Below, piece after piece: positions 1,031 to 61,704 of a DNA stretch of 64,000 bases. The DNA comes from Geodermatophilus obscurus DSM 43160. Lineage in GTDB: Bacteria; Actinomycetota; Actinomycetes; Mycobacteriales; Geodermatophilaceae. Location: NCBI RefSeq assembly GCF_000025345.1, contig NC_013757.1, forward strand, positions 3,658,001 to 3,722,000, written 5' to 3'. A program made the position numbers and the translations under genes. The notes under the pieces are model-generated. The model made no database searches. It was not told the DNA's origin and worked only from the letters and a program-made list of their open reading frames with translations. Each line of letters opens with the position of its first letter. The stretch's first letter is position 1.

Positions 1031-1083
1031 GGGTGGGCGCGGCCGGGATCGAACCGGCGACCGCTCGCTTGTAAGGCGAGAGC
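1031..1083. repeat. att site, left copy (53-bp direct repeat, partial tRNA-Val)
   Basis: These bases are identical to 28005-28057. They contain the acceptor 3' strand, T-arm, variable region and most of the anticodon arm of tRNA-Val on the minus strand. After 1083 the sequence no longer matches a tRNA, so this is not a functional tRNA gene. Confidence 0.9.
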
Positions 1084-2128: not shown

Positions 2129-3394
2129 TTAGGGAGTCTTATGTGGATTAGGCGCACCTGCGCTCGACGCGAAGGGTCGGTCGCCTCGGAGCGCAAGTCT
2201 CGCCGTGGCGGCCAATATGGCTACCGTGAACCCGCATAAGAGCAGTTGTGCATTTAGAATCGGTGCCAACGGAGGGTCGGAGTAGATTCGCAACCAGACG
2301 GTGTTTGCCAGTACGAAGGCGGCGCCCCCCGCCCATCCCGCGAGGATCGCGCCTTGGAGCGCACCTTGAGTAAAGGCCACAAGAGCAGCCAGGATGACGG
2401 AATAGGCCAGTACCATCGGGTCTGAGAACTTAAGGGTTCCAAAGTCGGAATCAGATGTCGGAATGGTGCTACCGACTAGGGATAGGGCCACAGGGGCAAA
2501 GGCGCCGACAAGAATCAACATAGGGCCGGCTCTGTCGGTTGGGCGCTGGTAACCAAAGCGCTCATCAGGATTCACCGCCAGCAGGAGTGCAACCAGTCCA
2601 AGGGCCACGACGATGGCCAAGACTGGCACCGATTCCGACCCCCACCCAAATGGGTCCCGCACCTGCGCGCTCCGCCACATCCTGAGACCGATGAATGGAG
2701 AAGCGCCAAGTAAGATTCCGCCTCCGATCGCAATCGACGGTCGCGTTCGGGCTGCCAAAATCCCAACTCCGACGGCGCCGACGGCGACAGCAGCTATCGA
2801 ATCGGCAATAAGAGTTGGTAACCACTCTCTGAACGCCCCCGTCACGGATAGGAAACTTTCGGCTATGAAACTTCCGGCAGCCAGAATTAGCAGGAGTCCG
2901 GCCGTCAGCGAGAGGCCGCGCCAACGAAGTCCTGGGTCTATCTCCGAAATGAGACGCGCCACATCGTGGTGGAGGCCCTCGAAGTGTATGGTAAATGCAT
3001 GGCGGTCTGCTAGCTTGGCCAAACTCTTAGGTAGTTCCGACCGACGTGGCATGACGGCACCGTTGGTCAAGACTGGAATTACTCGGACGTCACGCTGAAG
3101 GGCGGCCTCAATTTCCAGGCGCACGAAGTCATCAGGATCCTCAAGACGCCGCTGGCCCTGCGAGTCCGTCATCCTGAGCCATTGGGGGCCGATGACTGCC
3201 AGCAGCACATCGCACGCGCCTACCTTGCTGGCAATTACTTCGCGCCATTTTAGGCCAGGCCCCATCTCGACATCAATAAATACACGCTGCTTGCCGAAGT
3301 GATTGGCTAGCTTGTCATATAAGTGGCCAGCGAGAAAGTTTGCTTCCTGGCGCCGATAGGAAATGAAGATGCGGCTTGCTCCCCCTGTAAACAC
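2129..3394 (-). CDS. TIR-domain protein with C-terminal multipass membrane region
   Basis: The protein has 421 residues. I chose the GTG at 3394 because GGAGGTG lies eight bases upstream and the TIR strand FISYRR follows at once; a GTG at 3433 would add 13 unlikely residues. Residues about 8-155 form a TIR domain. It has the FISYRR start, RVFIDVEMGPGLKWRE (BB-loop area), CDVLLAVIGPQWL, and DDFVRLEIEAAL, whose Glu is the usual NAD-hydrolysis position. After about residue 165 come roughly eight hydrophobic helices. TIR domains in bacterial immunity consume NAD or make cyclic ADP-ribose signals; the membrane part could be an effector or sensor. The gene stands alone on the minus strand. Its base composition is markedly less GC-rich than the core genes, suggesting transfer. 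The defence role is inferred. Confidence 0.75.
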   Translation of the reverse strand: MFTGGASRIFISYRRQEANFLAGHLYDKLANHFGKQRVFIDVEMGPGLKWREVIASKVGACDVLLAVIGPQWLRMTDSQGQRRLEDPDDFVRLEIEAALQRDVRVIPVLTNGAVMPRRSELPKSLAKLADRHAFTIHFEGLHHDVARLISEIDPGLRWRGLSLTAGLLLILAAGSFIAESFLSVTGAFREWLPTLIADSIAAVAVGAVGVGILAARTRPSIAIGGGILLGASPFIGLRMWRSAQVRDPFGWGSESVPVLAIVVALGLVALLLAVNPDERFGYQRPTDRAGPMLILVGAFAPVALSLVGSTIPTSDSDFGTLKFSDPMVLAYSVILAALVAFTQGALQGAILAGWAGGAAFVLANTVWLRIYSDPPLAPILNAQLLLCGFTVAILAATARLALRGDRPFASSAGAPNPHKTP

Positions 3395-3624
3395 AGATGA
3401 TGCACCTCCGGCGCTATGGCGGCGGACCAGCATACCGACGTGGAGCCACCGAAACAGCTGACGTCGGCCCGCCGGTTCGAGGAATCGACGGGCGCCCCCG
3501 AAACTGACAGGCGATGGCCCCCGAAGGCCACCGTCGAGAGCTTGCGGCTGGCGCCCTCCAGGGCGGGCAGCGGCGCGGCACTAGCTACCCGCGCTCCTCA
3601 CGCCTGCCTGAACGGGTTCAGCGG

Positions 3625-8210: not shown

Positions 8211-9188
8211 GTGCTGCCCCGCTGTTGCGGCCCTATCAGGTTACGCCGGCTGATCGACTTGGTGGCGGCCCCCTATCTTCACGACGTGGGTGACCCGTGG
8301 GTCTACGAGCAACTACGCGCGGTCCGGGACCGGCATGACCTAATCCTTTTCGCCGGTGCCGGTCTTTCCGCTCAGGCCCGAAATCAAGATGGCCAGCGGC
8401 CGCCGCTGTGGCGTCCATGTATTGAGCAGATGCTTGCATGGTGTGAGACTGAGGGGCTCATTGCTTCATCTCACGGAGATGAGATTCGAGAACTGCTCGC
8501 GTTGGGATTCCTACCCGAGGCGGCCCAGGAGATTGAGGACGCAGTCAAGCCGGTCTCCGTGGGAGCGCTACAACGCTGTTTGGCCGAAGTATTGCTCTAC
8601 GACTCGGCGGAGACAAGCCTTGCTCATCGGCGTGCCGCACGGGCTGGATTTCGAGCCTTCATAACGACGAATTATGATGATCTGCTTGAGACCGCGTATG
8701 TCCGGACTCAGCGGAAAGTGCTGCCGAAGTACTACGAGGACACCCTGGACAATGTGCTGGACTCCTGGAGAAGTCGACAGCCATTCATCCTGAAGATGCA
8801 CGGCGACGTTTCCCGCCCTGGGCTTCTCGTGCTGGGTAATCGATCCTACGAGCGGGCCATCCACACCAACGGTGCCTTTAGTCGCGTTGTTGAGACCTTG
8901 ATCGGCGCATCATCGATACTATTCGTTGGTTACGGCGCGGGGGATCCGAATTTGGAGGGCTTGTTAACGCGGGGGGCTCTCTTCGATGGTCGCAGTAAGC
9001 GACACTGGCTCTTAGCTCCAGCCGCATCAATGCCAGCGCTCCGCGCTAAGCGGCTCTGGGCCGACAAAGGAATCAATGTGGTGACCTACAAGGGGAGCCA
9101 CGTCCACGTCGAAAGGTTTTTCCAACGCCTAGGTGCGCCAGTGACCTCTCCGGCAACACTCAGAATTCCAGCAGCGTTGGTGATCTAA
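8211..9188 (+). CDS. SIR2-family NADase-like protein
   Basis: The protein has 325 residues from GTG 8211. A GTG at 8286, just before DPWVYEQLRAVRDRHDLI, is an alternative start giving 300 residues, and neither has a clear binding site. It is a SIR2_2-type Rossmann fold. The NAD-binding GAGLSA is at residues 49-54, ITTNYDD at 151-157 (Asn154 and Asp156), and HGD at 197-199 (catalytic His197). LFVGYGAGDPNLEGLL follows near residue 242. Related SIR2 domains in Thoeris ThsA, DSR, Avs5 and SIR2-Argonaute systems destroy NAD when phage is sensed. No SLOG or membrane domain is seen, unlike ThsA. The stop lies one base before the start of the TIR-NLR gene, so the two form one operon. Base composition is lower in GC than core genes. 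A defence role is inferred. Confidence 0.8.
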   Translation: MLPRCCGPIRLRRLIDLVAAPYLHDVGDPWVYEQLRAVRDRHDLILFAGAGLSAQARNQDGQRPPLWRPCIEQMLAWCETEGLIASSHGDEIRELLALGFLPEAAQEIEDAVKPVSVGALQRCLAEVLLYDSAETSLAHRRAARAGFRAFITTNYDDLLETAYVRTQRKVLPKYYEDTLDNVLDSWRSRQPFILKMHGDVSRPGLLVLGNRSYERAIHTNGAFSRVVETLIGASSILFVGYGAGDPNLEGLLTRGALFDGRSKRHWLLAPAASMPALRAKRLWADKGINVVTYKGSHVHVERFFQRLGAPVTSPATLRIPAALVI

Positions 9189-9189
9189 G

Positions 9190-11571
9190 GTGACCTCTCA
9201 GGGGCAGGCTGCACGCTTCGATTGCTTTGTCAGCTACACCCTAGCGGACCGGGCGTGGGGGGAATGGCTGGCGTGGCAGCTACGTGAAGCGGGATACACC
9301 GTATTTTTAGACCCATGGGATATAACGCCCGGTGTCGACCTCATTGATAGCTTTCGGGGCGTGACTGAGGCGGCAGATGTTGTCCTAGTTGTTCTTTCCG
9401 ATGTGGACCCCGAGTTGGCGGTGTTCTCGCGCGCAGAATTGTCGGCACGTGCGTTGCGCGTGGGTGGTCTTGGGGCCATCCTGCCGGTACGGGTGTCTGG
9501 CGACAACCCCAGCGGGATATTCGCCGGACTGCGTTACCTCGACCTAGTTGGGTTGGATGAGGCTAATGCGCGAGACGCCTTGCTCGACGCGCTATACGGC
9601 ATAGAGGCCGCGCATTCGACTCGTGGTGCGGCACGGGTCTCTATCGACGATGAAGCACCAGCCTATCCCAGTCATGCCCCGTCATTCTCGGTGCCGCTAG
9701 CGCCCTCCAGTCGATTTGTCGGAAGGGACGACGACATGCTCAGGCTTGACCGAGCGCTGGCGACGCGGCCCAGGCGAATGGTGGCTCTCTCGGGCGTTGG
9801 AGGCATAGGAAAAACTCGGCTCGCCGTCGAGTACGCTTACTCGCGACGTTGGAACTACGAGGTTGTTTGGTGGCTTCGAGGCGAGTCTCAGGCCAGCCTG
9901 ATGGAAGACTTGGGGAAGCTAGCAACAGAGGGGCCAGCGGCCGGTCCTTCGCGCACACAATCCTCAACTCTGGAGCAGAGGGCTAAACGAGCTCGCGCTT
10001 GGCTCGCGGCCAATAGGGGCTGGCTGCTTATTGCAGATGACCTGAAGGATCCTCGTACGCTTACGGACCTGCTCCCGGAGCCGATTGAAGGTGACGTCAT
10101 TATCACGACGCGCACCCAATCCTTGACTGGCGGTGTAACGGCCGTCGATCTGGAGCCGCTCAATCATGAAGGCGCGGCCAAACTTCTTGAGAGCGAGGCA
10201 CTACCCTCGGGCATATCCCGGGCGGATTTTGAGCGGCTCACGGCGCACCTAGGGGGCCACCCCCTGTCGTTGAAGCTCGCCGCAGCCCAGCTGACGCACA
10301 CCCGTATGAGTGTGGACAGCTTTATATTCCAGCTCGAAAAGGCTGATGCTGACGCTGTAAGCGGCGCGGAGCGATCGTTAGAACTAGCGGTCGGCAACAG
10401 CCTTCGGATGCTGAAGCAAGAGGTGCCGGTAGCCCATGCTCTGCTAATGCTTTGTTCCTTCTTAGATGCTTCACCTCTGCCTACTGGGCTCGTCGTGGAG
10501 AACCGCAGATCGCTGCCTTCGGCGCTTAGGCGCGGCCTTGCCGATCCTTCATCCTATGTTGCTGCGGTTGAGCACCTTCAGAGCGTCGGGTTGATAACCG
10601 CGCGTGGCAACGGATTGCTCGTGCACCCGATGGTCGCCGCGATAGCACGCAGACAGTTGAGTGGGCGGGACCGGCGGCGCTGGGCGCAGGCGAGCGTGCG
10701 CTTGATGGATGCATGTCTTCGAATCGATGCGAGCCGCCCCAAGGACTGGTCGCTTGTTGGGCAACTCATACCGAATGCCGTAGGGGCTAGCGAATACGCG
10801 TCACGCGAAAGTGTGGGTCTGGAAGAGGCGACCCGGCTCTTGTCCTGGGCGGGGTCTTACCTTCACACACGCGGAGATACCACGCGGGCGCTCCCACTTC
10901 TTCGGCGCGCAGCCGACCTCGCAACCCGGTTGTCAGCTCCAGGCAATGCGGGGGCTGAGAGCCCTTGGGGGAACCTCGGAGTTGTGTTGTTCGCCCAAGG
11001 GGACTATGAGGAGGCTCGCCGGCACCTAGTTCGGGCCCTGCACGTCGCAGAGGAGGCGTACGGTCCCGAGGCGTCGGAAACGGCGAGACGTCGGGAGGAT
11101 CTAGCCCTAGTGCTGCGGGCGCTTGGTGAGCGTGCGGCCTCACTCGATCAACTGCATATGGTTCTTGGCATCCGAGAGCGGACCATGGGCCCTGATGACC
11201 CGGAAACGGGTAAGGCGCATGTTAATCTCGCTGCAGTGCTGCGTGAAAGTGACGACTCAACCGGTTCCATGGATCACCTTCGGGTTGCACTAGGCGTCTT
11301 CGAACGGGCGCTCGGTCCAGAGTCGCGCGAAGTTGCCGCTGTCAGGAGCAGCATGGCTGTCCTGCTGCGTGAGCAGGGTGAGCTTGAGGGCGCTCGGGCC
11401 AACTTCGAGGCTGCCCTTCGAATCTACGAGCGGGTCCTGGGCCCCCGACACGAGAACTGGGGCAGAGTGCATCAAGCCTTGGCTGAAATTTACAGGGAGC
11501 TCGGAGACCTGAGCCGGGCGGAAGAACATGCGGTGACGGGCCGAAACGCCATAGCGGATCCCGGTCGGTGA
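9190..11571 (+). CDS. TIR / NB-ARC (STAND) ATPase / TPR protein
   Basis: The protein has 793 residues and starts with GTG one base after the SIR2 stop. Residues about 8-140 are a TIR domain. It shows FDCFVSYTLADRAWGEWLAW, YTVFLDPWDITPG, and FSRAELSARA, whose Glu83 sits at the usual catalytic position. An NB-ARC ATPase follows, with SRFVGRDDDMLRLDRAL, Walker A GVGGIGKT (Lys208), Walker B LLIADD (278-284) and a GHPLSLKLAA helix. After a winged-helix-like part come about five 42-residue kinesin-light-chain-type TPRs to the C-terminus. The architecture is that of a STAND/NLR immune sensor: TPRs bind a trigger, NB-ARC oligomerises, and TIR makes or consumes an NAD-derived signal. Coupling to a SIR2 protein suggests a sensor-signal-effector chain. 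Confidence 0.8.
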   Translation: MTSQGQAARFDCFVSYTLADRAWGEWLAWQLREAGYTVFLDPWDITPGVDLIDSFRGVTEAADVVLVVLSDVDPELAVFSRAELSARALRVGGLGAILPVRVSGDNPSGIFAGLRYLDLVGLDEANARDALLDALYGIEAAHSTRGAARVSIDDEAPAYPSHAPSFSVPLAPSSRFVGRDDDMLRLDRALATRPRRMVALSGVGGIGKTRLAVEYAYSRRWNYEVVWWLRGESQASLMEDLGKLATEGPAAGPSRTQSSTLEQRAKRARAWLAANRGWLLIADDLKDPRTLTDLLPEPIEGDVIITTRTQSLTGGVTAVDLEPLNHEGAAKLLESEALPSGISRADFERLTAHLGGHPLSLKLAAAQLTHTRMSVDSFIFQLEKADADAVSGAERSLELAVGNSLRMLKQEVPVAHALLMLCSFLDASPLPTGLVVENRRSLPSALRRGLADPSSYVAAVEHLQSVGLITARGNGLLVHPMVAAIARRQLSGRDRRRWAQASVRLMDACLRIDASRPKDWSLVGQLIPNAVGASEYASRESVGLEEATRLLSWAGSYLHTRGDTTRALPLLRRAADLATRLSAPGNAGAESPWGNLGVVLFAQGDYEEARRHLVRALHVAEEAYGPEASETARRREDLALVLRALGERAASLDQLHMVLGIRERTMGPDDPETGKAHVNLAAVLRESDDSTGSMDHLRVALGVFERALGPESREVAAVRSSMAVLLREQGELEGARANFEAALRIYERVLGPRHENWGRVHQALAEIYRELGDLSRAEEHAVTGRNAIADPGR

Positions 11572-12683: not shown

Positions 12684-13373
12684 TCACGGCGTTTCAGGTG
12701 ACTGCTGGCGCTTCTCGGCCAGGTCGAGACGCCGCATCAAGAGGCTGGCTAGGGCCAGGTACTCCAATGCCTCGTCAGGGCTGTCCTGCACGGCTGACCC
12801 ATGTCCGCGCGGGTTGCGGATTCCGAGCATGGAGCCCATGAACAGGAACTTAAAGCCTTCTTGCTCATCCTGAGCACTGCGTCCCTGTACGCGGCTGATG
12901 TCCAGCAGCGGGGCGCTGAACACTGCGCCCATCAGCGGCGTACCTGAGTCCTGCCGTCCGGTCAGGGTCTGAACACGAGTCTCCACGGCCTGGAAGGCCT
13001 CCAGGACCGCCTGCCGGTAGGTCCCGGCCGCGTACAGATCAATTACGTCCTTGGGCAGCGCCGGATGAAGGCCCGGCAGCTCAACCTGAGCCTGGGTCAC
13101 CGGGCGGGGTGCCACGGCTACCGAAAAGTCGGCGGCGATGTGGTCGAGGTTGCGCGAACCACCGAAGGGACTCTGGTTGTGGGCGACCTTGGTTAGCTGC
13201 ACGGTCCGGATTTTGCCGTTAGGCAGCTGGTACTCGACCAGGTCTCCCTCCTCTACGTCAGTGGTGATCGGGAAGTACATCTGGTCGCCGATGAAGGCCT
13301 TGGCCTCGGTCGTCGTCGTCTCGTCTTCCCCGTCGGAGCGGAGAATCTTTACGGGCGTTTGGTACCGAATCAC
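12684..13373 (-). CDS. TIGR02391-family protein
   Basis: The protein has 229 residues from a GTG at 13373. The N-terminal about 80 residues are beta-rich (YFPITTDVEEGDLVEYQLPN). The C-terminal part is the family domain, seen as LHPALPKDVIDLYAAGTYRQ, EAFQAVETRVQTLTG, GFKFLFMGSMLGIRNPRGHG and LEYLALASLLMRRLD. The IRNPRGH segment corresponds to the conserved RN-x-H-like feature of HEPN-related domains. HEPN domains are often RNases in toxin and defence systems; for this family activity is not established. It is intact, unlike the copy at 7411-7932, and is transcribed away from the broken serine integrase. Confidence 0.65.
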   Translation of the reverse strand: MIRYQTPVKILRSDGEDETTTTEAKAFIGDQMYFPITTDVEEGDLVEYQLPNGKIRTVQLTKVAHNQSPFGGSRNLDHIAADFSVAVAPRPVTQAQVELPGLHPALPKDVIDLYAAGTYRQAVLEAFQAVETRVQTLTGRQDSGTPLMGAVFSAPLLDISRVQGRSAQDEQEGFKFLFMGSMLGIRNPRGHGSAVQDSPDEALEYLALASLLMRRLDLAEKRQQSPETP

Positions 13374-13726: not shown

Positions 13727-15056
13727 ATGTCCCGCGTTCGGCGGGTACATATCAGCGAGGTGACTCGGGGGGCACCAGCCGCGAGCGCGCCACTCGAGGA
13801 TGTGCGGGCGCTCTGCGCCGGTGTGCTGCCGGACCCAGGCGTGCATGGCGAGAACTGGCCGGTGCGCGAGCTGTACGAGCTGGAGCTGCTGCTGCGCGTC
13901 TGCGAGGACGTCGGCGCGCAGCACCTGCTGACCGGCGAGGGCGAAGTCACCAGCGAGGGCGTCATGGTGGCCCGCATCCGGGCCAGTGTCTCGGCGGAGG
14001 AGATCCGGAAGATGCGCGAGCGGCGGAAGCGTCGGCAGGAGGACATCGCCCTGGATGGTCGGTGGGGCAGCGGGTTCCGCCCGTTCGGGTACTCCGTCGA
14101 GCACCGGCCGGGCGACCGGAAAGCCTCCTACTCCGGGCACGTCCTGGTGATCAAGGAGGCGGAGGCGGCGCTGCTGTGCAACGCCGCGCCGGATCATCGA
14201 AGGGGCGTCGACCGAGAGCATCGCGCAAGAGTGGAACGCCGACGGGGTGACCACGGTGACCGGCCGCCGCTGGCGGGGGAAGAGCCTGCGCCGGATTATC
14301 ACCGCGCCGAGCGTCGCCGGGCTGCGAATCCATCATGGCGAGGTGATCGGTGACGCCGCGTGGCCCGAGATCCTGGACCGGGTCACCTGGGAGGTGGTTC
14401 TGACCACCTCGGAGTACGTCCCGAGGCCAGGAGGGTCGACCCCCGCGCGAGTACTCCCTCGCCGGGGGACGACCGTCTGCGGTCGGTGCGGCGGGCCGCT
14501 GAGAGGCCGCCCACGGGCGGACAAGGTCCGGTCGTACGTGTGTGGTGTCGCCAAGGACCGCGCGGACGGCTCACGGCCGTGTGGCGGCGTCCGGTGCGTG
14601 GCCGAGCCGCTGGAGGCGCTCGTCTTCGACGCCGTCCTGGCGGCGGTGGACGGCGGCGCGCCGGACACGGTGCTACGCGCGGACCTGGACGACGACGCCA
14701 CCGCCCGCCGGACCAACCTGCTGGCCGTGCTCGCCGAGGCGGAGACGAAGCTGGCGGGCGCGACGGAGAGGTTCCTGGAGGGCGAGGTCAGTCGAGCCGC
14801 GTACCTGCGGGTGAAGGCTTGGCACGAGGGCGTCGCCGCCGGTGCCCGGCGCGAGCTGGCCGCCATCGAGCGGAACAGCCGGCCCGAGGACATTCCCCGC
14901 AACACCAAAACGCTTCGGGAATGGTGGCCGGAGGCCACTCTGCTGCAGAGGCGCACTTTCCTGAAGCTTTTCATCGAGAGGGTGCACGTACTGCCCGCTC
15001 CGCATCGGGGAGCGCGTTTCTCGCACGAGCGAGTGGGACTGTTCTGGATCCGCTGA
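13727..15056 (+). pseudogene. large serine recombinase (integrase), truncated and frameshifted
   Basis: From ATG 13727 the frame gives the end of a resolvase catalytic domain (MVARIRASVSAEEIRKMRER) and the linker to the recombinase domain (LDGRWGSGFRPFGYSVE). After a shift near 14190 the gene continues SIAQEWNADGVTTVTGRRWR, through a zinc-ribbon-like part (TVCGRCGGPLRGRPRADK and a later CGGVRC), and a coiled-coil C-terminus to a TGA at 15056. The N-terminal catalytic Ser region is missing. This was a phage/satellite-type serine integrase and is now inactive. It lies upstream of the replication operon, the usual layout in actinobacterial satellites. It is a second integrase, separate from the tyrosine enzyme that explains the island borders. 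Confidence 0.7.
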
Positions 15057-22151: not shown

Positions 22152-23792
22152 CTACAGCGGCCAGGCGAGAGGTGCCAAACTGGCTAGCTCTCGAGCGCGC
22201 TTATCCACGTCTGCCTTCGTCCACGTCTGTTGCTCTTTCAGTGCGGCCGTCACCTGAAACGCCGATGTGCCATAAGTGACTGTCTTTTCGGCGAACGGCT
22301 TATCCTCAAGATTCTTATTGAGCCCCTTTTCCAGAAGTGCCATGTTGCCCAGCGTCTCGACGTAAGTGGCCTTGACTGCGTCGTTCTTGGCCTCCGCTCG
22401 AGGCATCAAGTGCTCTAGGGTCACCGTCCTGCTACTCCAATCGGGCATCCCGTCGAGGGGCATGCTGAGCTTGACGCGGTGTGCGCGCTCCAGCATGGCG
22501 AGCAGGTACTTCGCCCTTGTGAGCGGAACGTTACCAAAGGCGCGAAAATTGTCCGTAAACTCTCGGTCGCCAACAATCAGCGTCGAAAGGGCGGCTCGCA
22601 CCTCCTCTTGGTTCTTCGCGGTCTTGTTGCTGACGAGCTGGGCTGCTCGGCTGAACGCCTTCTCCGCAACGCTGCCTCCCAGACGCCCAGCAAATAGGGC
22701 GCGGATTGACCAGTTGGTCACCTTGGTAAAAAATCTAGCAGCTTTGTCTTTGTCGTCCGCCCAGGTGGCGAAGGTCGCCATGATCAATGGGTAGCTGCTT
22801 TCCAAGCCAAACCGGCGCATGGCAAGCACCGACTCGCGCATGTCAAAGTCCAGGGACTCCCACAGCGTGTTGTCGACGTCCTTAAGTGCGAGGTATGTGG
22901 CTCGGGCCGCGTCGAGTTGCTGGACGTATTTTTTTGCCTTCGACGGCCCAGTGCCGATGTCTTCCTGCAGCGCCTTGTACAATGCTCTGGTCGTCACGTG
23001 CCCGTTCCGGGACATGTAGTCATAGCGAAGGAACTTGACGAAATCCTCCGCTTTATCGAAGTCGCCGCTAATCTTCGTCCATGTAGCCTGCACGAGGGCG
23101 AAGTTGTGTTTCGCCTGACTGAACAGATAGTTTTTGAGCAGGTCGGCAGTTGTGAGGTCCGCGCCCCGATCGTTGAGCGTCTCGAAGATCACGTACGCTT
23201 CTGGCAGATCGGATGCGACCGCGACGAGCACCTGGACGTCCTCGTCCAACTGGGTAGTAATCTCGATGAGCCGCCTGTAGTCATCTTCTGCCGGCGCGAG
23301 CTCTCGAAGGTAGCGGCTCGCCTGCCGGTATGCGTCCGCAATCGAAGACGTGCCCTCGGCCGGCAGTGGCGCTCGCGCTAGTAGTAGGTCATACGCTGGC
23401 TGATCGGCCGGGTTTAGCACGATCCGCTCGACGAGCTCCTCCGCGTCCAGGTCGTATCCGCGAAGATAGGTCTCATCGATGTGCGTTGCGGACTTGTCCT
23501 TTTTAAAATCGCGGAGGGCGTCGCGGATGGCAACCAGGAGAATCGCGGTGGTCGCAAGCCTTTGCTGGCCGTCAACGATTTGCTGGCGGTGACTGTCGGT
23601 CGCATTGGCGAAGACGACCGTTCCGAGGAAGTAGCCGGTCTGTTTCTGGCGAGCAGTCGCTAGATCCGAGAGGAAATCTGCAACATTGCCCTCATCCCAC
23701 GAATAGCTCCGCTGAAACGCCGGGACCTCCAGCAAGCGGTCCGCAAGAAGGTGGCTAATGCGGTCGTGGTCAAACTGTGTTGTGTCTGCCAT
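22152..23792 (-). CDS. GmrSD-like DUF262/DUF1524 protein (type IV restriction family)
   Basis: The protein has 546 residues. I chose the ATG at 23792 because GGGGGAA lies just upstream and DUF262 starts at once. The N-terminal DUF262 (GmrS-like, ParB/Srx fold) shows LLEVPAFQRSYSWDEGNVAD, QIVDGQQRLATTAILLVAIR and TLNDRGADLTTADLLKNYLF. The C-terminal DUF1524 (GmrD-like HNH nuclease) shows TVTLEHLMPRAE, LGNMALLEKGLNKNLEDKPF and the final AEK. GmrSD enzymes cleave glucosylated-hydroxymethylcytosine phage DNA, and relatives (including the BrxU type) act on other modified DNA. The fused single-chain form is common. The gene is visibly poorer in GC than the core genome. Confidence 0.75.
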   Translation of the reverse strand: MADTTQFDHDRISHLLADRLLEVPAFQRSYSWDEGNVADFLSDLATARQKQTGYFLGTVVFANATDSHRQQIVDGQQRLATTAILLVAIRDALRDFKKDKSATHIDETYLRGYDLDAEELVERIVLNPADQPAYDLLLARAPLPAEGTSSIADAYRQASRYLRELAPAEDDYRRLIEITTQLDEDVQVLVAVASDLPEAYVIFETLNDRGADLTTADLLKNYLFSQAKHNFALVQATWTKISGDFDKAEDFVKFLRYDYMSRNGHVTTRALYKALQEDIGTGPSKAKKYVQQLDAARATYLALKDVDNTLWESLDFDMRESVLAMRRFGLESSYPLIMATFATWADDKDKAARFFTKVTNWSIRALFAGRLGGSVAEKAFSRAAQLVSNKTAKNQEEVRAALSTLIVGDREFTDNFRAFGNVPLTRAKYLLAMLERAHRVKLSMPLDGMPDWSSRTVTLEHLMPRAEAKNDAVKATYVETLGNMALLEKGLNKNLEDKPFAEKTVTYGTSAFQVTAALKEQQTWTKADVDKRARELASLAPLAWPL

Positions 23793-24246
23793 AGTTCCCC
23801 CGATGATCATTCGCGCCTCGGAGGAGCGTAGTGCGAGCGCGCCGCTGGCGCGCTCTTGACCCGAGGAAGCAACGTAACTCGGGAGCCCTCGGGCCTCCTT
23901 CGTCCCCCTTCGTTTTTCACCTCGGGCGTCCTCCCCTAGGTGCTGGCGCAGGTCTGCGGGGAGTCCGTCAAGGGCGCAGAGCGGGCGAGGCGTGTGGTTC
24001 AAGATCGGTATTACGCTAGTTACCACATACGCCTCCCGGTTACCTCAGCACCGAGCTAGTACCGCGACCGGCAATCTTCGCCCTGAGCGGCCCACTATGG
24101 GACACCGCGAGCCCGCTGACGGGCGGCTCGACCGTCAGCCGCCCGTGGGTTGATGCCGGCTGCGGCGAGTGCAACGGGACGTCGCATGCTTCCTCGGTGA
24201 GTCGAAGCGCGAGGCGTGTCAGGTCGGGCCGGTAGGGGCTACCGGC

Positions 24247-28004: not shown

Positions 28005-28057
28005 GGGTGGGCGCGGCCGGGATCGAACCGGCGACCGCTCGCTTGTAAGGCGAGAGC
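28005..28057. repeat. att site, right copy (53-bp direct repeat)
   Basis: This copy is identical to 1031-1083 and lies inside the intact tRNA-Val gene. Confidence 0.9.
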
Positions 28058-28079
28058 TCTCCCGCTGAGCTACGCGCCC
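28008..28079 (-). tRNA. tRNA-Val(UAC)
   Basis: This is a 72-nt cloverleaf on the minus strand. The acceptor is GGGCGCG/CGCGCCC, the D-arm GCTC/GAGC, the anticodon stem CTCGC/GCGAG with loop CTTACAA (anticodon TAC), the T-arm GCCGG-TTCGATC-CCGGC, and the discriminator A. The CCA end is not encoded. It is the integration target of the island. Confidence 0.93.
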
Positions 28080-56683: not shown

Positions 56684-57709
56684 TCAGACCGGAGCGAGGG
56701 CCTCATCACCGAGCGCCCGCAGGGTGTGGTGCGCCCGCCGGGCGATCTTGCGGGCGACCGAGAGTGCCGCCCGGTTGCCGCCGAGCCGGTCGGCGACCTG
56801 CCGGTAGTAGGCGTGATCCGGGGAGCCGGGGCGGGCGGCGCACTTGGCCGCCTCGAACAGCGCCCAGCGCAGCAGCGGCGAGCCCTGCCGCGATAGATGC
56901 CCCGGTGGGCGCTTGCCGTCGGAGGAGTAGACGGTGATGTCCAGCCCGGTGTGCCGGACCGCCTTGCGGGACGCGGAGAAGCGTCGGGTGTCGCCGAGCT
57001 CGGCCCACAGCGCCACCGCGGTGATCGGCCCGACCCCGTATTGGGCCTGCAGCGCCCGGCAGCCGGGCTGGCGGCGGGCGAACACCGCGATCTGCTTGCG
57101 CAGCGGAGCCAGCTCCGCGTCCAGGGCGTCCAGGATGCGCAGCGCCGCGGCGACCGCCTCCCGCCCCGCCGAAGACAGCTCTTCGGCTGCCTCGAGCCGC
57201 TGGCGGTTGCCCGCCCCGAGCAGATCGCCTGCGATCGCCGCGGCGCCCTGGTGCAGCAGGATGGCGTGGATGCGCTGGACCCAGGCGGTGTGCTCCTCAC
57301 GCAGGTCGCGGAACAGCTGCAGCCGGGCGCGCATCTCGCACACCTGCTCCGGCGGAATCCACGACTCCGGCAGCCGCCCGCCGGCCAGCAGCTCGCGCAG
57401 GTGCCGGGCGTCGGTCCGGTCGGTCTTCGCCCGCCGCTTCGGGCCGCGGGCGGCCGCGGTGTCGGCCGGCTCGGCCAGATGTGCCTCGATCCCGGCACGG
57501 CGCAGCTCCTCCACCACGAACCGCCAGCCGGTGCAGGCCTCCACCGCGAACGCCGCCGGCGAGTCGGCGACGGTGTCCTGCAGCCAGCGGCGCAGCAGCA
57601 TCCGGTCGGCCGGGGCGATCCGGCCGCGCCGGGTCTGGCCGCTGCGCTCATCGAGGTAGTCAAAGGTGATCTGCCGCCGGTGAACGTCCAATCCACCTAC
57701 GATCCGCAT
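56684..57709 (-). CDS. IS110-family transposase
   Basis: The protein has 341 residues from ATG 57709, with GAGGAGG upstream. The DEDD catalytic N-terminus is RIVGGLDVHRRQITFDYLDE, then FAVEACTGWRFVVEELRRAG and RAKTDRTDARHLRELLAGG. The C-terminal transposase-20 domain shows YGVGPITAVALWAELGDTRR, then FSASRKAVRHTGLDITVYSS and the Ser-rich PPGHLSRQGSPLLRWAL. IS110 enzymes are RNA-guided (bridge RNA) in well-studied members. The non-coding flanks 57710-57780 and 56241-56683 are where such an RNA would lie. It is inserted at the 3' end of the IS701 gene. Confidence 0.88.
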   Translation of the reverse strand: MRIVGGLDVHRRQITFDYLDERSGQTRRGRIAPADRMLLRRWLQDTVADSPAAFAVEACTGWRFVVEELRRAGIEAHLAEPADTAAARGPKRRAKTDRTDARHLRELLAGGRLPESWIPPEQVCEMRARLQLFRDLREEHTAWVQRIHAILLHQGAAAIAGDLLGAGNRQRLEAAEELSSAGREAVAAALRILDALDAELAPLRKQIAVFARRQPGCRALQAQYGVGPITAVALWAELGDTRRFSASRKAVRHTGLDITVYSSDGKRPPGHLSRQGSPLLRWALFEAAKCAARPGSPDHAYYRQVADRLGGNRAALSVARKIARRAHHTLRALGDEALAPV

Positions 57710-57720
57710 CGGGGGCCTCC

Positions 57721-58920
57721 TCACGCTCCTACAGCCGACGCACGTAAACGTGCGCCTGAGCTGAGGGGGTCCCTTCGCATGTCATCTTTTTCCGCGGTGG
57801 CTCGGGTAGCACTCAGATAGGCGTGGGCGAGCATGGCCAGGGTGATGTGCCGGTACCAGGCGGTGTAGTCCCGCACTTGGTAGGAGGCCAGCCCGGCCTG
57901 GTTTTTGGCCGCCTGAAAGCACTCCTCGATGCGCCAGCGACCACCGGCCACTGCGATGAGCTGCTCGAGGGTGGTTTCGGCCGGTCCGGCGCAGACGTAG
58001 AACGCCAGCTCCGCGGTCTCGCCGAGGTCGGTGGGAATGCTGCGGCGGGCCAGCACCCAGCGCGCCCAGCCGGGATCGAACCCGGCCAGCAGCTCGATCC
58101 GGGCCCAGTCGTAGAACCGCTGGCCGTGCGCGCCGGCGCCGGCCGAGCGCCGAGCCCAGGCCTCGGCCGGGACCTCGGCGATCAGGGCGCGGACCCGGCG
58201 CTGGCGCCAGTCGACGGTGGCCACCGTGTCGGTGCTGCGAGTGGCCAGCACATAGGGCAGCCCGTGCTGCTCGCACCACACCCGCAGCTGCTTGTCCTGC
58301 CCGTAGATCTCATTGGCGGTCAGCCAGCCGACCGGCACCCCGGCGTCCAGGGCGCGGGTGAGCATGCGGCGGGCCAGCTCCGGCTTGGTGGCGAAGCCGA
58401 CCTCGTCGCCGATGCCGGCGGCGCGGGCGCGCTCGCGGTCGTCGGTCCAGGCTCTCGGTAGGTAGAGCTCCCGGTCGATCAGCGCCCGCCCGGCTGAAGT
58501 GGCGTAGGCCAGGAAGACGCCGATCTGACAGTTGTCGATCTTGCCGGTGGTGCCGGTGTACTGCCGGCCCACGCCGGCCGACCGGCTGCCCTTCTTGATG
58601 AACCCGGTCTCATCCACGATCAGCACCCCGCCCGGGCCGAGCCGCTCCACCACGAAGGACCGCAGCTCATCGCGCACGGCGTCGGCATCCCAGTCCGCGG
58701 TGCGCAGCAGCCGCTGCATCCCATCCGGAGACACCTCCCCGGCGGCCTCGGCCAGCGTCCAGCCGTTCTTGCGCTCCAGCCGCCCGAGCAGGCCGCGCAG
58801 ATAGGCCAGCACCCGGGCCCGCGGCTCGGCCCGAGCAAACGCACCGGCAATCCGCCGGTGGACCTCCTCCAGGCCCGCCGCCCAGTCCTGCACCTCGGCC
58901 ACCAGGCCATCACAGCGCAT
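57721..58920 (-). CDS. IS701-family transposase, altered catalytic residue and 3' end
   Basis: The frame gives 399 residues from GTG/ATG 58920. The IS701 core is present: NGWTLAEAAGEVSPDGMQRL, VLIVDETGFIKKGSRSAGVG (first Asp), RQYTGTTGKIDNCQIGVFLA and RIEECFQAAKNQAGLASYQV (Glu). The second acidic site, usually T-A-D-E-x-Y-G, reads WLTANEIYGQDKQLR, with Asn for Asp, so catalysis may be lost. After ATRATAEKD the sequence becomes PLSSGARLRASAVGA, unlike family C-termini. It runs into the IS110 leader, so the end was probably replaced by the IS110 insertion. Confidence 0.75.
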   Translation of the reverse strand: MRCDGLVAEVQDWAAGLEEVHRRIAGAFARAEPRARVLAYLRGLLGRLERKNGWTLAEAAGEVSPDGMQRLLRTADWDADAVRDELRSFVVERLGPGGVLIVDETGFIKKGSRSAGVGRQYTGTTGKIDNCQIGVFLAYATSAGRALIDRELYLPRAWTDDRERARAAGIGDEVGFATKPELARRMLTRALDAGVPVGWLTANEIYGQDKQLRVWCEQHGLPYVLATRSTDTVATVDWRQRRVRALIAEVPAEAWARRSAGAGAHGQRFYDWARIELLAGFDPGWARWVLARRSIPTDLGETAELAFYVCAGPAETTLEQLIAVAGGRWRIEECFQAAKNQAGLASYQVRDYTAWYRHITLAMLAHAYLSATRATAEKDDMRRDPLSSGARLRASAVGA

Positions 58921-59057
58921 CCGAAAACGCTGCTACCAGCCCTCACTGGATCCCGGCAGCGACACACCTTCAAGTGCCGTTGCAGTACTAGCTCGTGATT
59001 CACTAAGGAGATCGCTAGTAGCTTGATCGCTAGCCAATGCGCGGAGACCATTGAGGA

Positions 59058-59245
59058 GTGCGCCAGGACGACGGCCGCAAGCTCGACCACCAGACGCTGC
59101 AGGCGCTGCGGCTGCGGGCGGTCGAGCAGGTGGCCCGGGGTGTGCCGGTGGCCGAGGTCGGCGCGGGCGGCCGCGCCGCCGCCTGCGGGAGCTGTTCGCC
59201 GACCGCGGCTACAACTACGACATCTACCGCCGACGGCGGCTGCTG
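59058..59245 (+). pseudogene. fusion of IS630- and IS5-type transposase fragments
   Basis: The first part (RQDDGRKLDHQTLQALRLRA, then VEQVARGVPVAEVG) is the N-terminus of an IS630-related transposase. It switches near 59165, in a different frame, to RGRPRRRLRELFADRGYNYD, an internal IS5 piece like that at 55470-55540. Recombination between insertion sequences is the likely cause. Confidence 0.5.
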
Positions 59246-59325
59246 GAGTCAGGCTCCGCAACACACCACGACCCTGCCCCGCCCGTCACCAGCAAGACGT
59301 CCCGCTAACCAGGCACGAGGTCATA

Positions 59326-59373
59326 AGTACCGCGTCAGGCAAACATTCGACGTGAAGGCGACCTCAGACACGC
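59326..59373 (+). repeat. IS-end-like repeat, partial copy
   Basis: agtaccgcgtcaggcaaaca continues with ttcgacgtgaaggcg. The first 17 bases match copy 1 at 1646 and the rest is diverged. Confidence 0.45.
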
Positions 59374-59553
59374 CCCGGTCGAGGTTCCGGTGCTCCGGGT
59401 CGATGCCCTCATGGTGAATGTCGGCGACTCCTGCGAGGTCAAGAGCAGCGCCTTGGTCTCCGCGGTCCTCAACCGCTGATCGACCGTGAGCTGGTCCTCG
59501 CGGAGTCGGTCGATTGCCGGCGTGGGACGAAGGCGCGGGGCGATCACGCCAGT

Positions 59554-60523
59554 GAGGTTTTCTCAGCGGATTGGTGGCCGACTGGATTGCCTGTGTTGAA
59601 GAGTGCAGGTCAGCAGCCGGTCGGGCGTGTCGCTGCATAGAGCGTGGGGCCCCGCATCGAGGATCGGTTCTGCCTAGGAACGATCGTCACCGCAAGGACC
59701 CCACGTGATCACCTACTCTGCCACGCTCGACGTGCCCGCTGAAACCGCCACGCTGCTGACCGAACTGCTGATCGCCGAACGGCTGCGCCGGGGCACCGGC
59801 GTGGGCGCCCGCGCCGCGTCGGCCCGAGAGCAGGCGGTGCTGGTGCTGCGCTGGTTTCGCGAGGACGCCGACATGACGGTGCTCGCCGCCGACACCAAGA
59901 TCTCGATCGCCACCGGCTACCGCTACCTGCACGAAGGCATCGACGCCCTCGCCGCCCACGCACCAGACCTGCACCAGGTGCTCGAGGCCGGCAAGGCCGC
60001 CGGCTGGACCCATGTCGTGCTTGACGGCACCCTCATCCGCACCGACCGCTGCCGAGTGAAGAACCCCGACACCGGTCATGACCTGTGGTTCTCCGGCAAG
60101 CACCACACCCACGGCGGCAACGTGCAGATCGTCAGCGACCCCGACGGGCACCCGGTCGCAGTCTCTGACGTCGAACCCGGCTCGACCCATGACCTGGCTG
60201 CCGCCCGAGCCACCGGCTTCCTCGGCGCGCTGCAGGCCGCAGCTGCCCTGCTGGGCCTGCCCGCGCTGGCCGACAAGGGCTACAACGGCGCCGGCGCCGG
60301 CGTGCTGACCCCAACCAAGGGCCACGGCCTGCATCCGGACAACCTCGCCCGCAACCAGCTCATCGGCTGCCTACGCGCCGAAGGCGAACGCGGGATCGCG
60401 CTGCTCAAGACCCGCTGGAAGGCGCTCAACCGCATCCGACTGTGCCCTCAGCGGATCGGCGCCGTCACCAAAGCAGCGCTCGTCCTGACCCGCGCCGAAC
60501 GACCAATCCGTTGAGAAAACCTC
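59554..60523 (+). mobile_element. complete IS5-family (ISL2-like) insertion sequence
   Basis: The 970-bp element has 21-bp terminal inverted repeats (gaggttttctcagcggattgg left; one mismatch on the right). A 3-bp target duplication agt lies on both sides (59551-59553, 60524-60526). Its outer 12 bases equal those of the MITE-like element at 20323-20533. Confidence 0.9.
59705..60514 (+). CDS. IS5-family DDE transposase
   Basis: The protein has 269 residues from GTG 59705. A helical N-terminus (AREQAVLVLRWFREDADMTV) with HTH-like ISIATGYRYLHEGIDAL precedes the DDE core. WTHVVLDGTLIRTDRCRVKN has the first Asp, VQIVSDPDGHPVAVSDVEPG the next acidic strand, LPALADKGYNGAGAGVLTPT the second Asp, and EGERGIALLKTRWKALNRIR the Glu helix. 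It belongs to the DDE_Tnp_4 branch and is complete within intact ends, so it may still be active. Confidence 0.88.
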   Translation: MITYSATLDVPAETATLLTELLIAERLRRGTGVGARAASAREQAVLVLRWFREDADMTVLAADTKISIATGYRYLHEGIDALAAHAPDLHQVLEAGKAAGWTHVVLDGTLIRTDRCRVKNPDTGHDLWFSGKHHTHGGNVQIVSDPDGHPVAVSDVEPGSTHDLAAARATGFLGALQAAAALLGLPALADKGYNGAGAGVLTPTKGHGLHPDNLARNQLIGCLRAEGERGIALLKTRWKALNRIRLCPQRIGAVTKAALVLTRAERPIR

Positions 60524-60536
60524 AGTGGTAGCCCTA

Positions 60537-61701
60537 GTGCTCCGTTGCGGTGTTCCTTGATGTGATCATGGCTTGGGGTCGACCATTTCCTATGCCTGCG
60601 CACGTGCGGACGGTCGAGGTGCCGGAGGGCGATCGGCGAGAGCTGGAACGGCGGGTCCGGGACAAGGCAGCACCGGCCCGGGTGGTCGAGCGAGCCCGGA
60701 TCGTGCTGCTGGCCGCCGACGGCGTGCCGGGCAAGCGGATCGCCGCGATCGTCGGCTGCGCCGAGCCGACGGTGGTGACCTGGCGCGGCCGGTACGCCGA
60801 GCGCAGCCTGGCCGGCTTGGAGGATCTGCCCCGGCCGGGCAAGCCCTCGCCGCTGCCCGAGGCGCTGCGCGATCGGGTGCTGGAGCTGACCCTGACCGAG
60901 CCGCCGACGCAGTTCGGGGCGACGCATTGGTCCTCGCGGCTGCTGGCTGAGGCGCTGGCCGGCGAGGGGACGCCGATCTCGCACGTCACGGTGGCCCGCA
61001 TCTGGCATCGCTTCGGCGTGCAGCCGTGGCAGGCACAGACGTTCAAGTTCTCCACCGATCCGCAGCTGGAGGCCAAAGTCCGTGACGTCGTCGGGCTGTA
61101 TCTGCACCCGCTGGAGAAGGCAGTGGTGCTCTGTATGGGCGAGAAGCCGCAGATCCAGGCGCTGGAGCGGACGGCTCCGACCCTGCCGGTGCGGCCCGGA
61201 GATCCCGAGGCGGCCACCCTCGACTACGTCCGGCACGGCACCACCACGCTGTTCGCCGCTCTGGAGGTGGCCACCGGGCGGGTCACCGAGGCCTGCACCC
61301 AGCGCCACCGTCACCAGGAGTTCCTGGCGTTCCTCAAGCAGGTCGCCGCCGCCTATCCCCGCCGCGAGCTGCACGTCGTGGTCGACAACCTGTCCACCCA
61401 CAAGCACCCGGCGGTGCGCGCCTGGCTCGAGCGGCATCCCAGGATGCAGCTGCACTTCACCCCGACCTCGGGATCGTGGCTGAACCTGGTCGAGGCCTTT
61501 TTCTCGATCATCACCCGGCAGGCGCTGCGCCGCGGGAACTTCCCCACCGTGGCCGACCTCGTCAACGCCATCGAGCGCTTCATCGCCGCCTGGAACGACC
61601 GCTGCCGACCGTTCACCTGGACCAAGGATCCCGACACCGTCATCGCCAAGGCCACCGACCCTCGCCGCCGGAAGACACAGACGACGTCAGTTACGGAGCA
61701 C
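60537..61701 (+). mobile_element. IS630-family insertion sequence
   Basis: The ends gtgctccgt (60537) and acggagcac (61701) are inverted repeats. TA dinucleotides flank both sides (60535-60536, 61702-61703), the target duplication of this family. It starts 13 bp after the IS5 element. Confidence 0.85.
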
Positions 61702-61704
61702 TAG
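60592..61704 (+). CDS. IS630-family transposase with changed first catalytic residue
   Basis: The protein has 370 residues from ATG 60592 (GTG 60550 or ATG 60568 are in-frame alternatives). The HTH region GKRIAAIVGCAEPTVVTWRG and linker are followed by THWSSRLLAEALAGEGTPIS and the DDE core. In this family the first Asp normally lies in a V-D-E-K-S-Q motif; here the sequence is VVLCMGEKPQIQALERT with Gly in place of Asp. The second Asp (HVVVDNLSTHKHP) and Glu (SGSWLNLVEAFFSIITRQAL) are present. The element ends look intact, but the Gly change suggests loss of activity. Confidence 0.85.
   Translation: MPAHVRTVEVPEGDRRELERRVRDKAAPARVVERARIVLLAADGVPGKRIAAIVGCAEPTVVTWRGRYAERSLAGLEDLPRPGKPSPLPEALRDRVLELTLTEPPTQFGATHWSSRLLAEALAGEGTPISHVTVARIWHRFGVQPWQAQTFKFSTDPQLEAKVRDVVGLYLHPLEKAVVLCMGEKPQIQALERTAPTLPVRPGDPEAATLDYVRHGTTTLFAALEVATGRVTEACTQRHRHQEFLAFLKQVAAAYPRRELHVVVDNLSTHKHPAVRAWLERHPRMQLHFTPTSGSWLNLVEAFFSIITRQALRRGNFPTVADLVNAIERFIAAWNDRCRPFTWTKDPDTVIAKATDPRRRKTQTTSVTEH

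What the first reader, a model, noticed from the sequence alone, without database searches (positions are those of the whole stretch)
8211..11571. SIR2 gene translationally coupled to a TIR-NB-ARC-TPR (NLR-like) gene: candidate undescribed immune system
Seen: a SIR2_2 protein with GAGLSA, TTNYD and HGD motifs, followed after one base by a 793-residue TIR / NB-ARC (GVGGIGKT) / TPR protein. Known: in Thoeris a stand-alone TIR makes a cyclic ADP-ribose signal that activates a SIR2 NADase (ThsA), and in Avs5 SIR2 is fused to a STAND sensor. Inference: here the signal-making TIR is fused to an NLR-type sensor while the SIR2 effector is separate. This would combine both designs: TPR-NLR senses phage, TIR signals, SIR2 depletes NAD. 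The SIR2 protein lacks an obvious SLOG domain, so the activation route would differ from ThsA.
Basis: partly seen in the sequence, partly recalled or inferred. Interest (0 to 1): 0.9.

Follow-up and report, generated by a model that had tools for sequence, protein, structure and literature searches.

The report
NAD-destroying enzyme paired with NLR-like sensor
An actinobacterium carries, on a mobile DNA segment that also holds other defence-type genes, a two-gene unit joining a predicted NAD-destroying enzyme to a plant-like immune sensor; the exact pair was not found elsewhere, but similar enzyme-and-ATPase pairs turned out to be common in related bacteria.

Summary
An intact SIR2_2 gene (8211-9188) is followed after one base by an intact TIR/NB-ARC/TPR gene (9190-11571). 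They match in codon usage and lie in a 27-kb element bounded by a 53-bp repeat that copies part of tRNA-Val, with other defence-type genes. SIR2 N154 and H197, P-loop K208 and TIR E83 are present; there is no SLOG domain. What recurs is a lone SIR2_2 gene joined to a STAND ATPase gene: in 394 actinomycete genomes, 23 of 31 lone SIR2_2 genes abut an nSTAND1 gene, and 20 of these face a TIR-less NB-ARC-TPR gene (17 of the 20 near FxsB, i.e. in FxSxx-COOH peptide loci). TIR fused to NB-ARC occurred in 0 of 18 FxsB loci with SIR2 and 9 of 20 hand-picked ones without (partly confounded by lineage). Best reading: an acquired two-gene NLR defence unit whose SIR2 NADase is controlled in trans by the STAND partner, probably by contact; unusual in holding both NADase types. 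New variant of a known kind.

The parts
8211..9188 (+). SIR2_2 gene, 325 aa (start may be 8262 or 8286); predicted NADase effector, single SIR2 fold, no SLOG
8670..8672 (+). codon of N154 in TTNYD (catalytic Asn position of SIR2 NADases)
   Evidence: role of this Asn from PMC12931631 passages
8799..8801 (+). codon of H197 in HGD (catalytic His position)
   Evidence: HG motif from PMC12931631 passages
9190..11571 (+). TIR/NB-ARC/TPR (NLR-like STAND) gene, 793 aa; 282.8 bits against the fxsT model, cut-off 300
9226..9582 (+). TIR domain (residues 13-131), E83 in the conserved Glu column
   Evidence: that this Glu is catalytic is recalled
9685..10689 (+). NB-ARC region (residues 166-500), P-loop GVGGIGKT at 9793-9816
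10819..11553 (+). TPR superhelix (residues 544-788)
1031..1083 (.). left copy of the 53-bp perfect direct repeat (probable att site)
28005..28057 (.). right copy of the 53-bp repeat, in the tRNA-Val gene (28006-28079, minus strand)
22152..24026 (-). GmrSD-type (HEC-06-like) restriction gene in the same element
2129..3433 (-). second TIR_2 gene in the same element
12684..13373 (-). Hypoth_ymh gene (PD-Lambda-3_B-like) in the same element

Best explanation
A horizontally acquired two-gene NLR-type abortive defence unit. The TIR-NB-ARC-TPR protein senses an invader through its TPR superhelix and switches by nucleotide-driven oligomerisation of NB-ARC; the SIR2 protein encoded with it is the NADase effector held and released in trans by this STAND partner, most likely through direct contact or co-assembly, as a split counterpart of SIR2-STAND fusions. 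The TIR is a second NADase or an assembly surface. Shown: gene structure, domains, retained catalytic positions, predicted SIR2 fold, element setting, codon-usage match, recurrence of lone SIR2_2 genes joined to STAND genes. Inferred: defence, sensing, co-transcription, NAD loss, contact activation.
For: One-base spacing and mutual nearest codon usage among 19 chosen genes. 27-kb element at tRNA-Val with GmrSD, TIR and Hypoth_ymh genes. SIR2 model matches ThsA, DSR2, KomBC and Avs5 SIR2 domains (Z 21-28). NLR model matches STAND-TPR 6mfv, RPP1, Apaf-1, Avs3. PF13289 survey of 394 class genomes: 23 of 31 lone SIR2_2 genes (window included) abut an nSTAND1 gene downstream and 20 face an NB-ARC-TPR gene (TIR-less). 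G546 and Vibrio relatives overlap an upstream ParA-like or AAA ATPase gene. 19 of 80 SIR2_2 places lie within 12 kb of FxsB, about 0.15 expected for 8-Mb genomes. TIR-NB-ARC fusion in 0 of 18 FxsB loci with SIR2 and 9 of 20 without.
Against: The exact pair is a singleton in the searches made. The window SIR2 is a long branch outside the SH-aLRT-99 branch that holds all 28 Fxs-linked SIR2 rows (quick tree), so the recurrent pairs are analogous, not shown to be homologous. In Fxs loci the gene joined to SIR2 is nSTAND1 while NB-ARC-TPR is divergent, so the wiring differs. The 0-of-18 versus 9-of-20 contrast is confounded: 7 of the 9 TIR-fused loci are from family f33 and the SIR2 loci from f31 and f32; only G643 and G589 hold both kinds. 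4 of 18 SIR2 loci have a separate TIR gene, and 4 of 20 loci without SIR2 still have nSTAND1. E83 is retained, which the contact model does not need. No complex was modelled.
Confidence: 0.5

Rival explanations
1. Thoeris built on an NLR: sensing by TPR/NB-ARC activates the TIR, which makes a cyclic ADP-ribose-type messenger that switches on the SIR2 NADase.
For: TIR and SIR2 genes adjacent; E83 retained; ThsA SIR2 domains are the best matches by sequence and fold; a small SIR2 protein can act with dITP and a partner (KomBC, PDB titles only); 4 of 18 SIR2-bearing FxsB loci have a separate TIR gene nearby.
Against: No SLOG in the SIR2. SIR2-STAND partnerships elsewhere mostly do without a TIR. 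The TIR has Asp where 31 of 34 rows have Tyr (position 73) and a low-confidence loop there.
Confidence: 0.2
2. Two independent neighbours: the TIR-NB-ARC-TPR protein is a self-sufficient TIR-NLR defence and the SIR2 gene is separate or orphan cargo of the element.
For: A TIR-STAND-TPR protein system protects E. coli (PMC9122126, passages; that it is one gene is my reading). 28 of 29 NLR homolog loci show no SIR2 within about 1.5 kb and the other is an Fxs-type divergent one; four TIR-NLR paralogs in the same genome have none adjacent. The pair is not conserved.
Against: One-base spacing and codon-usage match; lone SIR2_2 genes in the class sample mostly have an abutting ATPase gene (23 nSTAND1 and 1 ParA-like of 31; HerA-like at three loci).
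Confidence: 0.22
3. A derived remnant of an FxSxx-COOH locus that lost its peptide, maturase and nSTAND1 genes and kept or acquired a TIR-type fxsT.
For: The NLR scores 282.8 against the fxsT model; SIR2 genes occur in part of Fxs loci.
Against: No FxSxx-ending small ORF in the window, no FxsB over cut-off in the genome, SIR2 outside the Fxs SIR2 group, direction and partner differ.
Confidence: 0.06

Closest known systems
TIR-NLR (TIR-STAND-TPR defence, Rousset 2022, PMC9122126, passages)
   Same: TIR, central STAND NTPase, C-terminal TPR in one protein
   Different: No SIR2 partner in the passages read; not aligned directly here
Avs5 / AVAST type 5 (SIR2-STAND fusion, PMC12931631, passages)
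   Same: SIR2 NADase governed by a STAND ATPase with C-terminal repeats; the same SIR2 fold
   Different: Here SIR2 is a separate protein, the STAND is NB-ARC and carries its own TIR; the Avs5 proteins there are fusions with a predicted nSTAND3 part
Thoeris (ThsA SIR2-SLOG + ThsB TIR)
   Same: TIR and SIR2 together; SIR2 closest to the ThsA SIR2 domain
   Different: No SLOG; the TIR is fused to NB-ARC-TPR
FxSxx-COOH (Fxs) loci with fxsT; TIR-AP-ATPase-TPR in them described by Kaur 2020 (PMC7159879, passages)
   Same: NB-ARC-TPR (with TIR in some loci); SIR2_2 genes near 19 of 110 FxsB places
   Different: No peptide or radical SAM gene here; NLR just below the fxsT cut-off; Fxs SIR2 is joined to nSTAND1 and usually faces a TIR-less NB-ARC-TPR gene
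SIR2-HerA and Kongming KomBC
   Same: Stand-alone SIR2 protein acting with a separate partner; HerA-like pairs seen in the survey at L153, L156, L157 (Pfam-checked for L157 only)
   Different: Partner is HerA or KomB, not a STAND NLR

Membership tests
Thoeris | SIR2 effector with SLOG-type ligand domain | tested here: not met
   Only SIR2_2 by Pfam up to E 0.1; the model is one SIR2 fold over about residues 22-318 of 325
Thoeris | stand-alone TIR messenger synthase (ThsB) | tested here: not met
   TIR is the N-terminus of an NB-ARC-TPR protein; a separate TIR_2 gene lies about 5 kb away, link unknown
Avs5 | SIR2 fused to STAND in one polypeptide | tested here: not met
   Two ORFs, stop at 9186-9188, start at 9190
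TIR-NLR (Rousset) | TIR-STAND-TPR architecture in one protein | tested here: met
   architecture of the reference from passages
TIR-NLR (Rousset) | sequence membership | not tested
   The reference protein was not compared
FxSxx-COOH (Fxs) system | fxsT at or above the NCBIfam cut-off | tested here: not met
   282.8 against 300 bits
FxSxx-COOH (Fxs) system | FxsA peptide and FxsB maturase | tested here: not met
   No FxSxx-ending small ORF of 25-159 aa in the window; no FxsB over cut-off in the genome
SIR2-HerA | HerA partner | tested here: not met
   Adjacent downstream gene is TIR/NB-ARC/TPR
SIR2 NADase superfamily (PF13289) | family match with catalytic Asn and His positions | tested here: met
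NAD-depleting defence | NAD loss on infection | not testable with these tools
   needs an experiment

The most novel reading that the evidence does not exclude
Actinomycetes hold a general, so far unnamed class of in-trans SIR2-STAND systems, in which a lone SIR2 NADase is encoded directly with a STAND ATPase. In FxSxx-COOH loci a radical-SAM-modified peptide would help gate NLR-controlled SIR2, with TIR fusion and SIR2 gene as interchangeable NAD-destroying outputs; the window unit is a peptide-free form that carries both outputs on one NLR circuit.
Probability: 0.35. Interest if true: 0.78.

Novelty: new variant of a known kind. Interest (0 to 1): 0.55.

Why it matters
It gives a testable case in which one NLR-type unit holds both NADase families of immunity, TIR and SIR2. 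It also led to a recurrent arrangement (NB-ARC-TPR facing fxsA-SIR2-nSTAND1, with fxsB near) that offers a concrete effector for FxSxx-COOH peptide loci. The one relevant paper listed on those loci proposes that the peptide acts as a toxin or signal amplifying the system, coupled to AP-ATPase effectors (PMC7159879, passages); 'sir2' and 'sirtuin' have 0 occurrences in its main text. Searches in which I saw no description of SIR2 in these loci: (open-licence PMC library only; one search listed 12 of 301 papers).

Tried and rejected
Conserved pair: searched in genus, order, class, genome contigs (exact short peptide patterns, so moderately diverged kin could be missed), viral contigs, plasmids and phages: no second copy seen. 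In one search at most two candidates per genome were scored. Plasmid neighbours were read for 2 of 109 NLR records (no SIR2 annotated) and 4 of 60 SIR2 records: Hymenobacter has a DUF262 gene one base upstream and no gene annotated as STAND; Vibrio has an AAA ATPase gene overlapping upstream; the Burkholderia and Enterococcus stretches had no annotated features, and their ORFs read by eye suggested a ParA-like gene and a Thoeris-like pair. Fxs membership: rejected. Window SIR2 in the Fxs SIR2 group: not supported, on a quick tree only; the careful tree did not finish and the window row is a long branch. Promoter and terminator scan gave nothing clearly above shuffles. Absence of other families from fold lists is not used as evidence.

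Rows dropped and selection: in the SIR2 survey 3 of 79 non-window places (L162, L167, L174) were not recognised by my SIR2 profile; one search leaves out the window, includes it and lacks L153 at a stricter threshold, so both show 31 short genes. Of the 31, four (L161, L176, L177, L194) showed no partner by these profiles and two (L156, L157) are HerA-like pairs. One search scored at most four candidates per genome; of its 110 FxsB places 109 are over the cut-off. FxsB loci without SIR2: 20 fetched of 91, hand-picked, 11 of them among the 24 best scorers, and 8 of the 9 TIR fusions are the 8 best scorers, so 9 of 20 is not a rate for the family. FxsB loci with SIR2: all 19, as 18 loci. Rows are related species and lineage is confounded, so the Fisher p-value (0.0013) overstates the case.
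Full report
Observation. The two ORFs are as described: 8211-9188 (325 aa) and 9190-11571 (793 aa), separated by one base. Pfam finds SIR2_2 in the first and TIR_2, NB-ARC and TPR in the second. The SIR2 start could be 8211, 8262 or 8286; the first 20 residues are poorly predicted. N154 and H197 are nearly invariant in a 54-row alignment, the P-loop K208 is invariant in 26 NLR rows, and E83 falls in a column with Glu in 31 of 34 TIR rows, two of them the window gene itself. In the same alignment the window TIR has Asp where 31 rows have Tyr (position 73), so its activity cannot be told.

Setting. G000 is one 5.32-Mb contig; from its size I recall Geodermatophilus, no call names it. A perfect 53-bp direct repeat lies at 1031-1083 and 28005-28057, the second in a tRNA-Val gene, so the pair probably sits in a 27-kb integrated element; no integrase was identified in it. 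The element also carries a GmrSD/HEC-06-type gene, a second TIR_2 gene and a Hypoth_ymh gene. GC is 0.588 and 0.617 in the two genes against 0.68-0.78 in the ten genes sampled outside the element, and each is the other's nearest in codon usage among 19 chosen window genes. Among the matches listed when 20 kb of window DNA was searched in 26 genus genomes, none but the window itself covers 8211-11571 (the list was cut).

Is the pair conserved? For SIR2, 25 of 26 genus genomes have some match at 1e-3, but apart from the own gene (736 bits) these are at most 44.7 bits, in open frames of 542 aa or more where listed (own second match 660 aa). At 1e-15, 1 of 298 order genomes matches, the own one; at 1e-12, 3 of 394 class genomes, own included. 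The genome-contig scan gave 16 relatives at 21-33% identity, none with a TIR-NB-ARC gene in the fetched stretch by my profiles. For the NLR, 29 of 394 class genomes match at 1e-40, own included (at most two candidates scored per genome); of 29 non-window loci read out of 43 non-window places, only L080 has a SIR2 neighbour within about 1.5 kb, an Fxs-type divergent one. Five other strong NB-ARC-TPR matches of the own genome (1.9e-40 or better), four with TIR, have no adjacent SIR2. Phages gave no match for either protein; plasmids gave only matches under 60% identity (60 and 109 records).

What recurs. A survey with PF13289 over 394 class genomes found 80 places in 63 genomes; I fetched stretches around the 79 others. 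Lone SIR2 genes (415 aa or less) numbered 31; 20 had an NB-ARC-TPR gene within 1 kb, on the opposite strand and without TIR by my profile, against 1 of 45 longer SIR2 genes. In one search (31 short genes, window included), 23 abut an nSTAND1 match just downstream and one a ParA-like gene upstream; HerA-like genes follow at L153, L156 and L157 (Pfam for L157). Pfam confirmed nSTAND1, and reported no TIR, in seven such partner proteins scanned. Locus L127 was confirmed by NCBIfam as fxsT (987.9 bits), FxSxx-COOH peptide (34.4) and FxsB (461.9), with SIR2 and nSTAND1 genes between peptide and FxsB; the other loci were assigned by my profiles and coordinates. FxsB gave 110 places, 109 over cut-off, in 78 of 394 genomes. 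19 of 80 SIR2_2 places and 19 of 110 FxsB places are within 12 kb of each other, against about 0.15 expected for 8-Mb genomes; by matching loci, 17 of the 20 NB-ARC-facing SIR2 genes are among these 19.

Output swap. In 18 FxsB loci with SIR2 (all 19 places), none has TIR fused to NB-ARC and all have nSTAND1; in 20 hand-picked of the 91 without SIR2, 9 have the TIR fusion, 4 have nSTAND1 and 2 show no NB-ARC (Fisher p 0.0013). Against a simple swap: 4 of the 18 SIR2 loci have a separate TIR gene without NB-ARC; 7 of the 9 TIR-fused loci are from family f33, while the SIR2 loci are from f31 and f32. Genomes G643 and G589 (f31) hold one locus of each kind. So TIR fusion and SIR2 gene look like alternative outputs in Fxs loci, with lineage as a confounder; the window unit has both.

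Structure. The SIR2 model (54 rows, mean pLDDT 83.4) aligns to ThsA, DSR2, KomBC, Avs5 and FAM118B SIR2 folds (best chains Z 20.6-27.9). The NLR model (26 rows, mean pLDDT 83.1, pTM 0.69) matches STAND-TPR 6mfv, plant RPP1, Apaf-1 and kinesin light chain TPRs. No complex was modelled.

Mechanism. I judge a STAND-controlled SIR2 effector in trans most likely (0.5), because lone SIR2 genes are repeatedly joined to STAND genes in which no TIR was found. The Thoeris-like route (0.2) stays open because E83 is kept and because KomBC structures pair a small SIR2 with dITP (PDB titles only). Independence (0.22) stays open because TIR-NLR defence exists without a described SIR2 partner (PMC9122126 passages). 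The window SIR2 is a long branch outside the Fxs SIR2 group (quick tree), so the comparison is by analogy.

Literature. Kaur 2020 (PMC7159879; passages) describes TIR-AP-ATPase-TPR genes downstream of FxSxx peptide systems; 'sir2' and 'sirtuin' have 0 occurrences in its main text. Kaur 2021 (PMC8195603; passages) names SIR2 among 13 alternative effector domains of a TPR, GreA/B-C and PIN system. PMC12931631 (passages) shows SIR2 NAD hydrolysis in Avs5. PMC10952713 was read in passages. Searches for this pair or for SIR2 in Fxs loci; I saw no description of either in what was shown, but for most papers only listings were seen, and most subscription papers and preprints are not held.

Noticed in passing
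1031-1083 and 28005-28057: Perfect 53-bp direct repeat, right copy in tRNA-Val: probable 27-kb integrative element.
   Followed up: partly
L127:1815-8474; similar at L175, L178, L179, L181, L183 and others: SIR2_2 gene joined to nSTAND1 in FxSxx-COOH loci, facing a TIR-less NB-ARC-TPR gene; near 19 of 110 FxsB places.
   Followed up: yes
L209-L216, L228: FxsB loci whose NB-ARC carries a fused TIR and in which no SIR2 was found: apparent output swap, confounded by lineage.
   Followed up: partly
L137:3471-13662 (own genome): Two SIR2 genes (711 and 410 aa); the second abuts an nSTAND1 match, the first an ORF with a similar start but no Pfam match; about 8 kb from a TIR-NB-ARC-TPR gene.
   Followed up: partly
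L164:2990-5683: One ORF with NB-ARC and SIR2 profile matches in a single polypeptide, beside another NB-ARC gene.
   Followed up: no
L050:7247-9123, L207:3461-5316: Lone SIR2 relatives overlapping an upstream ParA-like or AAA ATPase gene.
   Followed up: partly
13727-14353 and 14247-15056: Two overlapping reading frames that look to me like pieces of a recombinase, perhaps a frameshifted gene; neither has an NCBIfam match.
   Followed up: no
56684-61704: Cluster of IS110, IS701 and IS630 transposases.
   Followed up: no
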